A stretch of DNA of 64,000 nt. It comes from Streptomyces sp. NBC_00425 (lineage in GTDB: Bacteria; Actinomycetota; Actinomycetes; Streptomycetales; Streptomycetaceae). The notes under the pieces are model-generated. The model ran no database searches. It was given only the letters and a program-made list of their open reading frames with translations, and was not told the DNA's origin. Of this stretch, positions 14,542 to 17,757 are shown piece after piece; the stretch's first letter is position 1, and every line of letters begins with the position of its first letter. The translations under genes were made by a program, and so were the position numbers. The stretch lies in the NCBI RefSeq assembly GCF_036030735.1, contig NZ_CP107928.1, positions 7,998,001 to 8,062,000 of the forward strand, read 5' to 3'.

Positions 14542-16476
14542 CTACTCCGGAGGCGGCGTCACCAGCTTCGTAGCGCTGGGGTCGACGTCCGCAGCACAGG
14601 CCAGGGTCGGCAGGTCGCGGTCGAGCAGGCCGTTCATTTCGATGGCCGCCCGGCTGAGCAGGTGGGCGGCCTGGACGGACTGGCCGTCGGCGACGGCGGC
14701 GTAGAACCGGGCGGCATAGGTGATGGCGTCGACGTCGCCGATGGTGTCGGACATGCCGATGGCGAAGGGCACGGTGTCGACCAGCTTCCCGGTCTGGGCC
14801 GCAGAGTGGCAGGAGTTGAGCAGGACCAGCAGCGGCTTGTCGTCCACGGCGGCGATGGCCCGGGCGAAGGCGCCGGCGCTGACGATGGCACCTTCGTGGA
14901 AGCCGTCCTCGCCTTTCTCGAATGCGATCAGGTCCTGCGTGCTGTGACCGGAGAAGTGCACGACGTGGGGACGGAACCGGGTCAGCGCGTCCAGGAAGAC
15001 GTCCGCCGTCGCGGCCGGGTGGAGATCCAGGTCGACAAGGTCTCGATGGGTGGCACTCTGCACGGCCGCACGAATCCTCTGCTGCTCCTGGCCGACTCGC
15101 AGATCACCGGCGGAGGCGGCCGCCAGCAGCAGCACCCGCAGTTTCTCCGGCTTCGGGGCCCGCAGTTCCCTCATCACCATGCGCACCTCGCCCTCCGTCG
15201 CCGTCAGGCGGCTCTCGATCTTCTGCTGCTCAGCTGCGGCACGCCGCTGCGTCTTCTGCTGTTCACGCTGGCGAGCCTTCTCCGCGGCCGCCCGCTCGGC
15301 CTGTTCCGCTTTCGCCAGCTTGGCCGAAAGGTCAGCTGCCTCTTTGGAGAGCTTGCCCACATTGGCGCTCCACGTGCTGGCATCCTGGCCCGCCTTGTTG
15401 GCCTCGTTCTCGTACCGCTGGGCAGCACGCAGCTTGCTGTTGACGGTGCTCTGGCTGCTCGCCTTGGCGGCGGCCGATCGCTCCTTTGTGGCCTTCGCGC
15501 GCTTGTCGGCTTCCTTCTTGCGGAACTCGCCGACCTTCTTCTCCGCGTCAGCGCGAGCCTTGTTCTTCCTGTCCAGCTGGCTCCGGTAGTAACTGGCGTT
15601 CATGGAGGTGCCCTTCTGCGGTTCCCGTTTAGCCAGGTTATGGCCTCCCGCTGACAAGGCTTCGTCTGCCATGACAGCGTTCGAGCGGGACGGGGCAAAG
15701 GGTTCCGAGGGGCGGAAGCGTTCGGGCAGGCTAGACAGCAGCCAAGCCCAGGCCTGAAGGTTCTTGCTTCTCACGTTCACACGTTGGAAGCGTCCGTGGA
15801 AGGCTGGCACTTCCTCATAGAGGGTCTCGGAGACGAGGAGTGCGCACTCGGATTGCGGCTCGCGCAGCGCATCTGAGCCGACGAGCCGATTGACACGCTC
15901 CACGCTCTCCCCAGCAAAACCGTACCTCCCCGTAACGACGGCTCCTGAGTCCATCGCGACTCTCAGGCGCATGGTGTGCCCCTGTTCAAGGGCGTGCCGA
16001 AGCGCTTGGGCGAGGCCCTCGGCGAATCCAGGTACAGCCCTTGCTTCGTCTGCCCCCGGGGGCAGGAGGATGAGGACGCCATCGCCTTGGTCGTGGCGGA
16101 CGCACGCGTCAGGCTCGACCCCCGCCGCTTGTATCGCATGGCGAAGAGCACCATCAAGATTCTCGTGCCATGACTGTCGCGAAGCCGCGGTCATCGCCGC
16201 GAACCCCACGGTGTCGACGGCGATACACACCCTGCGGATCGCTGGCGCCGCACCATTTTGGAAACGCAGACCAGTGATCATCCTGTTGGGATGGGACGGC
16301 GGCGCGTAGCCGATGACGCATTCCTCGAGCGGGGCTGGCCCGGCAGGCTTCTCGTCGTCGTCCACGGCCACAACGAAACCTGCGACAAAGGAATCACCCG
16401 ACAACCCCAGATGGTGCTCGGTCTGTGTGAAAGCAGCCTTCCAAGAGGAGGGCGTTCCGGTCCGTTTGAACTCCAC
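14542..16476 (-). CDS. Nuclease-like - nucleotidyl cyclase-like - CHAT protease protein
   Basis: A 644-residue open frame. Residues 1-75 finish a PD-(D/E)XK-like module whose VEFKR gives the E-x-K; its earlier Asp (RRFDLLWRIDG) lies upstream of the GTG start in the same frame. Residues ~78-240 resemble class III nucleotidyl cyclases/GGDEF-like folds (RRVCIAVDTVGFAAM, DQGDGVLILLPPG, LVSETLYEEV). Residues ~290-420 are a long Lys/Ala/Glu coiled coil. Residues ~450-640 are a CHAT caspase-like protease with VVHFSGHS (catalytic His) and LLNSCHSA (catalytic Cys). An ATG at 15603 with AGAAGG upstream could give the coiled coil-CHAT part alone (353 residues), the form common in Streptomyces. Probably a conflict-system effector. 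The upstream gene overlaps at a TGA. Confidence 0.72.
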   Translation of the reverse strand: MEFKRTGTPSSWKAAFTQTEHHLGLSGDSFVAGFVVAVDDDEKPAGPAPLEECVIGYAPPSHPNRMITGLRFQNGAAPAIRRVCIAVDTVGFAAMTAASRQSWHENLDGALRHAIQAAGVEPDACVRHDQGDGVLILLPPGADEARAVPGFAEGLAQALRHALEQGHTMRLRVAMDSGAVVTGRYGFAGESVERVNRLVGSDALREPQSECALLVSETLYEEVPAFHGRFQRVNVRSKNLQAWAWLLSSLPERFRPSEPFAPSRSNAVMADEALSAGGHNLAKREPQKGTSMNASYYRSQLDRKNKARADAEKKVGEFRKKEADKRAKATKERSAAAKASSQSTVNSKLRAAQRYENEANKAGQDASTWSANVGKLSKEAADLSAKLAKAEQAERAAAEKARQREQQKTQRRAAAEQQKIESRLTATEGEVRMVMRELRAPKPEKLRVLLLAAASAGDLRVGQEQQRIRAAVQSATHRDLVDLDLHPAATADVFLDALTRFRPHVVHFSGHSTQDLIAFEKGEDGFHEGAIVSAGAFARAIAAVDDKPLLVLLNSCHSAAQTGKLVDTVPFAIGMSDTIGDVDAITYAARFYAAVADGQSVQAAHLLSRAAIEMNGLLDRDLPTLACAADVDPSATKLVTPPPE

Positions 16477-16546
16477 TGGGCAGTACCGGCCGTCGATGCG
16501 CCAGAGCAGGTCGAACCGACGTGTGTCCTCCGGGCCGAGCCGACGT

Positions 16547-17757
16547 TCACGGGTCTAGGTGGAGTCCCCGCCCGTCGAGGAAATGTGATAGATCCTCGGC
16601 AATCTCCGTCTCCGTCATTCGCGAGCCGTCAGACCGGGCGTGGACGTAGAGAAGCAAGTAGAGAAGTAGAAGGGCCGTGTCCTGTGGGGTGCTGCCCACT
16701 CGGGCGAAAGCGGCTTGGACCTCCGAAGGGCACAGGTGCAGCAGCGATTCCACATACTGCGCACGCAGACGGGGTCTCACGTCGGCGGGCGGCTCGCCGC
16801 GGCGCTCCGCGACCGTGTCCACCAGATTCATGACGGAATCCCAGCGAGGAATATCCGTTTCGCCGGAGAGTGTGGCGATGCCTAGTTCTTCGGACAGCAA
16901 GTCCAGGGATTCGTTCAGTCCGTCGTTCGACACCCATGCGAACGCAGGCTCGGCGGAGGGTTCCCCGGTGGTCGGGGACAGCACAGCTCTGTCGGAGGCA
17001 GTGTTGTTGGTTTCGGGGTTCGCCAGTCCCAGGCGTGCCTGCAACGCGGGCCCGAGGTAGGCGAACGGTGTGGCGGTCACTTGGTCGTCCGGGCCCAGGG
17101 GCCACGCGGGGAAGTCCGAGGAGTGGCCGATCAGGGACTCGATGCGCTCTCCCACCCGCCGACTGCAGTCGAGGAGTTCGGTGGTGGGGACGGCATCGAG
17201 CAGCAAATCCTTTGCTTCGGCTGTGAAGTCGAACAACTGGTGGCGGCCGGTGAACTGCGCGTCCCCGGATGACAGAAGGGGCTGCATCAGTCCGCCCAGG
17301 AGGACCTCGGCCAGCGGTGCGGCCCCCTGCCGCTGGTGGAGGCAGGAGTGGACGAGTTGCATCACGGGCACGGTGACGGGAGCCATGGCCGCCAGATGCG
17401 CGGCCAGGCGCACCGCTTCGGGCGAGGCGGCGCGGCCGAAGTCCCGGACGGAGACGCGGCTGGGCTTGCCAGCAGGTGTCTGGGGCCGGTGGGGTGACCA
17501 CAGGCGTACCGGCATGGGGCGCCCGACTGTGGTGTTCACGGCGGCCCAGGTCGAGAAGCCGGTCGGGGTGAGGTTCAGTACGGGGATGGGAACGGGCGGA
17601 GGCGGGGCGACACTCGGGGGGAGTACCTGGTCCGTCACTGTCCAGGCGCTGTTCGGCACGCCCGGGCGGGGTGAGGTGACCTGCCAGGTGTCCGCCCGTA
17701 CGCCGGAGCCCGCCCACAGTCGACGGGGGAGGGTGTGGATCACGGCGGTGGGACCGT
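16547..17757 (-). pseudogene. SAV_2336-type protein, 5' end removed by IS5-type insertion
   Basis: About 400 residues of a Streptomyces family often labelled SAV_2336-related: GPTAVIHTLPRRLWAGSGVR, then DTWQVTSPRPGVPNSAWTVT, then a conserved RLAAHLAAMAPVTVPVMQLV, and FDFTAEAKDLLLDAVP. It reaches a TGA at 16547-16549. One base later the other frame continues smoothly (RERRLGPEDTRRFDLLWRID) into the nuclease-like/cyclase/CHAT protein, so the two were probably one protein or a frameshift-coupled pair. The 5' part is missing because an IS5-type element occupies 17759 onward. Likely sensor or scaffold of the adjacent CHAT module; now probably not expressed normally. Confidence 0.65.

What the first reader, a model, noticed from the sequence alone, without database searches (positions are those of the whole stretch)
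14542..17757. SAV_2336-type, nuclease-like, cyclase-like and CHAT modules linked by a +1 frameshift-like TGA
A SAV_2336-type gene ends at CCG TGA A. Skipping the T continues smoothly, through a PD-(D/E)XK-like module (RRFDLLWRID to VEFKR), into a frame encoding a nucleotidyl cyclase-like domain, a coiled coil and a CHAT protease. The downstream frame's first start codon falls inside the nuclease motif, so it cannot make that module alone. The site resembles the bacterial RF2 +1 recoding site (codon, then UGA, then C), here with a G-rich run about 12 bases upstream. Sensor, nuclease, signal enzyme and protease in one cistron would be a remarkable conflict system.
Basis: partly seen in the sequence, partly recalled or inferred. 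Interest (0 to 1): 0.7.

Follow-up and report, generated by a model that had tools for sequence, protein, structure and literature searches.

The report
Broken sensor gene beside CHAT protease
The apparent frameshift joins two pieces of a broken copy of a multi-domain Streptomyces conflict gene that is whole in a close relative, and the part still intact is a small protease gene whose promoter looks DNA-damage-inducible.

Summary
The two frames, the TGA and the smooth join are real, but not recoding. P0011 from Streptomyces sp. G6 (1322 aa, 95-97% identical) reads straight through the join. So do the 28 of 28 database relatives found, P0011 among them, and the G125 gene at DNA level. The window copy also lacks its first ~245 residues at an IS5-family element (17778-18672). 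It is a broken gene; the TGA alone could be a sequencing error.

The gene matches the variable vWA component of MoxR-vWA-VMAP conflict systems (Kaur et al. 2020): G125's copy follows VMAP-C and MoxR-like AAA genes. A caspase ends 28 of 30 aligned rows. In P0011 and the window a coiled-coil/CHAT gene replaces it. Elsewhere that is a free-standing ~353-aa gene; here it keeps its own ATG and a RecA-NDp-type (DNA-damage) promoter motif. The motif precedes 14 of 18 comparable CHAT genes against 2 of 72 control windows, and recA, uvrB and ung in this genome.

Most likely only the 353-aa CHAT protein is made intact here, on DNA damage. Recoding is rejected; the damage-promoter CHAT cassette is the lead to keep.

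The parts
17778..18672 (-). IS5-family element (overlapping transposase frames 18222-18644 and 17740-18594) abutting the truncated gene
   Evidence: 89%-identical copy elsewhere in the genome spans 17778-18672 and a partial copy also ends at 17778; NF033580 and DUF4096 matches. No terminal inverted repeats were found at these ends
16547..17776 (-). 5'-truncated SAV_2336 / vWA-type piece (P0011 residues ~246-653)
   Evidence: NF041121 profile 249-474 of 475; 95% identity to P0011
16547..16549 (-). TGA that ends the upstream frame; the lesion (or sequencing error) at the join
   Evidence: not in L035, P0011 or the 27 other relatives found
16258..16521 (-). nuclease-like module (order of strands and helix compatible with a restriction-endonuclease core, D...ExK); activity doubtful
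   Evidence: predicted E15-19 E22-30 H37-50 E57-64; D 28/30, E 21/30, K 11/30; this part was not covered by the structure look-up
15712..16254 (-). class III nucleotidyl-cyclase-fold domain
15658..15690 (-). fusion junction: first residues of the lost caspase domain (SNAV), then sequence of the CHAT gene's upstream region
   Evidence: DNA similarity to stand-alone CHAT loci starts at ~15660-15666 in the closest three; same junction in P0011, P0149, P0150
15635..15657 (-). RecA-NDp-type (DNA-damage) promoter motif, 11 of 12 specified bases, 31 nt before the CHAT start
14542..15603 (-). intact coiled-coil + CHAT protease gene, 353 aa, ATG start, TAG stop, likely His220/Cys265 dyad
   Evidence: ends; homologues; H220 and C265 invariant in the 36 aligned sequences and aligned with PDB 8tl0

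Best explanation
The locus is the remnant of a recombined conflict-system gene. An ancestral SAV_2336/vWA protein with a nuclease-like module, a cyclase-fold domain and a C-terminal caspase lost its caspase and was joined to a free-standing coiled-coil/CHAT protease gene, taking in that gene's upstream region with its DNA-damage-type promoter. The fusion is whole in Streptomyces sp. G6. In the window's strain it then broke: the start and first ~245 codons are gone at an IS5-family element, and a net one-base change made the TGA (or the TGA is a sequencing error). The sensor half is then dead. The CHAT gene keeps its own start and promoter and is probably still made, on DNA damage, as a 353-aa cysteine protease acting on cell proteins. 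Shown: the lesions, continuous relatives, the junction, the promoter motif and the intact CHAT frame. Inferred: order of events, that the IS caused the loss, damage induction, protease activity and any role in defence or cell death.
For: P0011 aligns end to end at 97% (downstream) and 95% (upstream) with no break. 28 of 28 relatives found and L035 are continuous over the join. IS boundary at 17777/17778. 28 of 30 rows of alignment A1 carry the EACC1-type caspase; P0011 does not. Closest CHAT loci elsewhere share DNA with the window only from ~15660 downstream, and the SAV_2336 piece finds nothing in them. Motif in 14 of 18 CHAT loci aligned from residue 1, against 2 of 72 control windows. Motif 28 times in this genome against 2 for the reversed control; of ten downstream genes scanned, chosen by eye as repair-like, recA, uvrB, ung, ogt, dnaN and rpsF pass curated cut-offs. 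The same promoter type goes with 5-fold UV induction of S. coelicolor SCO6735 (PMC5087735, section 11).
Against: Apart from the TGA there is no further stop in the downstream stretch and identity to P0011 stays 95-97%, so decay is recent and the TGA could be a sequencing error. The relatives come from a database of predicted proteins, which under-represents broken genes. No terminal inverted repeats were found for the IS. The window's motif departs from consensus at one position, and 4 of 18 CHAT loci lack the motif. Authors working on S. venezuelae wrote that an initial search suggested the mycobacterial PafBC motif is not conserved there (PMC9380542, passages). No expression data were available.
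Confidence: 0.85

Rival explanations
1. The TGA is a sequencing or assembly error; the true gene reads through there and only the 5' truncation at the IS is real. (A sub-case of the best explanation, so the two odds overlap.)
For: 95-97% identity to P0011 with no other frame lesion on either side of the join; no stop in the 317 codons before the CHAT start.
Against: The genome is a single contig, and the gene is independently broken at its 5' end, so a frame lesion would be unselected. Reads were not available.
Confidence: 0.3
2. Programmed +1 frameshifting at the TGA makes a full-length product, as in RF2.
For: The frames join smoothly.
Against: TGA kept in 0 of the 28 relatives found and not in L035. 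The base after TGA is A; the G-run ends 16 nt upstream. The upstream frame has lost its beginning.
Confidence: 0.02
3. The downstream frame is an independent gene started at an internal codon (GTG 16476 or another), giving a cyclase-CHAT protein.
For: The frame is open from there to 14542.
Against: That start lies inside a module conserved in longer proteins. The CHAT gene has its own ATG and promoter motif, and lengths near 353 aa prevail among the 120 homologues listed.
Confidence: 0.08

Closest known systems
vWA component of MoxR-vWA-VMAP ternary conflict systems (Kaur et al. 2020, PMC7159879; passages read)
   Same: Variable C-terminal effector domains, nuclease plus cyclase combination reported there; the G125 relative sits after VMAP-C and MoxR-like AAA genes
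   Different: Window copy is truncated and the neighbouring frames scanned are not these partners; CHAT in place of the caspase (the word CHAT has 0 occurrences in that paper's main text). That SAV_2336 equals this vWA component is my inference; the paper does not use the name
P0011, Streptomyces sp. G6, SAV_2336 N-terminal domain-related protein (1322 aa)
   Same: Same modules, same junction, 95-97% identity
   Different: Continuous frame with complete N-terminus; its DNA and neighbours were not available
Stand-alone actinobacterial coiled-coil/CHAT proteins of ~353 aa (e.g. Streptomyces sp. NBC_00015 plasmid, locus L108)
   Same: Whole 353-aa protein at 93.5%, strict promoter motif
   Different: No SAV_2336 gene annotated beside it (that gene table is incomplete)
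RecA-NDp (PafBC-type) DNA-damage promoters of Actinobacteria
   Same: TTGTCRGTG-N8-TAnnnT layout (consensus recalled; the type is named in PMC5087735 and PMC8223512, passages), upstream of recA and repair genes here
   Different: Here in front of a CHAT protease; induction untested

Membership tests
Programmed +1 frameshift gene (RF2-like) | Shift stop conserved in homologues | tested here: not met
   0 of 28 relatives found, and not L035; protein databases under-represent broken copies
Programmed +1 frameshift gene (RF2-like) | Shift codon, UGA, C and an adjacent SD-like stimulator (layout recalled) | tested here: not met
   CCG TGA A; G-run ends 16 nt before the TGA
vWA component of MoxR-vWA-VMAP system | SAV_2336 N-terminal domain (equation with the vWA component is inferred) | tested here: met
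   In part in the window (profile 249-474, below cut-off); complete in P0011 and L035
vWA component of MoxR-vWA-VMAP system | Adjacent MoxR AAA and VMAP genes | tested here: not met
   Neighbouring frames scanned around the window copy are a different AAA protein, an APH-fold protein and transposases; the rest of the window was not scanned for VMAP. Met in the G125 relative: VMAP-C E 1.2e-26, AAA_5 E 4.5e-8
CHAT protease | CHAT profile or fold with His-Cys dyad | tested here: met
   Through relatives: 7 of 36 members hit PF12770, not the window protein itself; profile hits PDB 8tl0; H220 and C265 invariant. Own fold model not finished; proteolysis not tested
Class III nucleotidyl cyclase | Cyclase fold | tested here: met
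Class III nucleotidyl cyclase | Catalytic residues for activity | tested here: inconclusive
   Putative metal Asp kept 26/30 and 25/30; the position where an Asn is expected (recalled) is mostly hydrophobic
PD-(D/E)XK nuclease | Core fold with D...ExK | tested here: inconclusive
   Compatible predicted order of strands and helix; D 28/30, E 21/30, K 11/30; not covered by the structure look-up
RecA-NDp / PafBC promoter | Motif at fixed spacing ahead of the start | tested here: met
   11 of 12 bases, N8 spacing, 31 nt before ATG
RecA-NDp / PafBC promoter | Induction by DNA damage through PafBC | not testable with these tools
   needs expression data

The most novel reading that the evidence does not exclude
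A coiled-coil/CHAT protease gene moves among actinobacteria as a self-contained cassette with a DNA-damage promoter, and is repeatedly joined to the C-terminus of SAV_2336/vWA conflict proteins. Where the promoter is kept inside the fused gene, one locus can give two products: a sensor-tethered protease, and a free protease induced by DNA damage, tying conflict systems to the RecA-independent damage response.
Probability: 0.3. Interest if true: 0.6.

Novelty: new variant of a known kind. Interest (0 to 1): 0.3.

Why it matters
It removes a recoding claim and shows with close relatives how these effector modules are exchanged: caspase out, CHAT in, at one junction also found in proteins with different middle domains. 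The damage-type promoter gives a direct test of whether a CHAT protease belongs to the actinobacterial DNA-damage response; a 2022 paper wrote that it remains to be shown whether a RecA/LexA-independent response exists in Streptomyces (PMC9380542, passage).

Tried and rejected
Programmed frameshift: rejected, see above. Independent cyclase-CHAT gene from GTG 16476: disfavoured. Pfam on the window's own two frames gave nothing above cut-off, so identity rests on NCBIfam, relatives and structure. The rows shown by the structure look-up all lie on the cyclase domain, which says nothing about the fold of the nuclease-like part. No terminal inverted repeats were seen for the IS (the ends were also compared by eye).

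Searches with limits or little result: the join DNA against 296 relatives gave 19 genomes at E <= 1e-3; besides the window's own, only G125 and G172 are below 1e-14 and neither is a second fused locus. In one search, 168 of 392 genus genomes matched, mostly by generic cyclase or CHAT similarity; among the matches listed only the window's own covers the full query. At E <= 1e-40 the CHAT protein was found in 6 of 394 class genomes and 6 of 197 order genomes, the own genome included. The three protein searches each scored only the 8000 candidates sharing most words. No paper with SAV_2336 and none with 'CHAT domain' + 'DNA damage' + 'Streptomyces' in the held library. The structure of the CHAT protein was requested and not finished when last asked.

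Counts: for the promoter count I gave only 29 of the loci held (shorter or duplicate CHAT loci such as L051, L052, L067-L069, L071, L073 were left out beforehand). Dropped from those 29 before the 14-of-18 count: the window itself and ten whose alignment does not begin at residue 1 (some are fusions, L017 and L046 the same place); none of the ten reaches 10 of 12. The 18 are not independent (for example two S. anulatus plasmids), and the Fisher value ignores this. L043's CHAT gene (G172) is itself in two frames. The motif was loosened at one position to admit the window's own site; the other 27 sites fit the strict form. Of 28 sites, 10 downstream genes were scanned; the uvrA, PcrA, DinG/YoaA-type and Hel308-type pieces there are cut by the locus end and below curated cut-offs.

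Full report
What is there. On the minus strand a frame that starts against an IS5-family element at 17776 ends at TGA 16547-16549, and the next frame is open to 14542. The upstream frame is the second half of a SAV_2336 domain plus a further stretch (NF041121, positions 249-474 of 475). The downstream frame holds a nuclease-like module, a cyclase-fold domain and a coiled-coil/CHAT protein.

The join is not recoded. The protein database holds P0011 from Streptomyces sp. G6, 1322 aa, which matches the window at 95% upstream and 97% downstream of the join with no break. The 28 proteins found with the G125 relative as query, P0011 among them, all run over the join in one piece (8000 candidates scored). 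So does that relative itself at DNA level: L035, a 1145-codon open frame. A database of predicted proteins under-represents broken copies, so L035 and the near-identity of P0011 carry most of the weight. The upstream frame also has no beginning: about 245 residues of P0011 are missing at the IS, whose end at 17778 is shared by two other copies in the genome; terminal inverted repeats were not found. The site lacks the RF2 layout: the base after TGA is A and the G-run ends 16 nt before it (layout recalled).

The CHAT part is a guest. In 28 of 30 aligned rows the protein ends in an EACC1-type caspase (the two others are the window piece and P0011). In P0011 and the window the frame passes from the first residues of that caspase (SNAV) into sequence that elsewhere lies upstream of a free-standing CHAT gene: DNA similarity to the closest such loci begins at 15660-15666. 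The 353-aa CHAT protein has 938 relatives at E 1e-5 or better among 8000 candidates scored. The same junction occurs in P0149 and P0150, which have trypsin, TIR and TPR middle parts (P0149 scanned; P0150 from the listed domains). Other fusions (helicase type and P0152) start the CHAT module near the same residue after different linkers. Of 22 larger proteins found with this CHAT part, 19 carry a SAV_2336-like N-terminus by BLASTP to P0011, P0011 included.

Its promoter. The segment before the CHAT start contains TTGTC-type and TA...T boxes eight bases apart, 31 nt before the ATG, the layout of the RecA-NDp promoters of Actinobacteria (consensus recalled). Among 18 other CHAT loci aligned from residue 1, 14 have at least 10 of 12 bases; control windows further upstream reach that in 2 of 72 (loci not independent). 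The four without it are L041, L044, L072 and L112. In this genome the motif occurs 28 times against 2 for its reversed control. Ten downstream genes, chosen by eye as repair-like, were scanned: recA, uvrB, ung, ogt, dnaN and ribosomal S6 pass curated cut-offs; uvrA, PcrA and DinG/YoaA- and Hel308-type helicases match as cut pieces below cut-off. The other 18 sites' genes were not scanned. SCO6735 in S. coelicolor has this promoter and rises 5-fold after UV (PMC5087735, section 11). Against this, a 2022 study reported that an initial search suggested the mycobacterial PafBC motif is not conserved in S. venezuelae (PMC9380542, passages).

Reading. The sensor gene is broken here; the CHAT gene is intact and probably under damage control. 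I put the broken-gene reading at 0.85, counting within it the possibility that the TGA alone is a sequencing error, and recoding at 0.02.

Noticed in passing
window 12651-14253 (+): An AAA-type ATPase frame (12651-13982) is overlapped by another frame (13798-14253) with a RAMA-like domain (E 4.3e-7, below Pfam cut-off); possibly a second frame-broken gene.
   Followed up: partly
window 18793-19608 (+): APH-fold phosphotransferase gene between two insertion elements (IS5 type at 17778-18672 and a HTH_32/DDE_3 transposase at 19652-20815).
   Followed up: no
window 25736-32068 (+): 2110-aa RHS-repeat protein.
   Followed up: no
window 44326-44348 (+): A second RecA-NDp-type motif in the window, strict form (genome 8042326-8042348); a 331-aa frame starts 25 nt downstream but was not identified.
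   Followed up: no
L043 (G172) about 5124-6177: A stand-alone CHAT gene with a strict RecA-NDp motif but itself split into two frames.
   Followed up: no
P0151, P0153-P0163, P0165-P0167: SAV_2336-like / ResIII helicase / coiled-coil-CHAT proteins of about 1700-1800 aa: an apparently separate, older fusion class (two of them scanned).
   Followed up: partly
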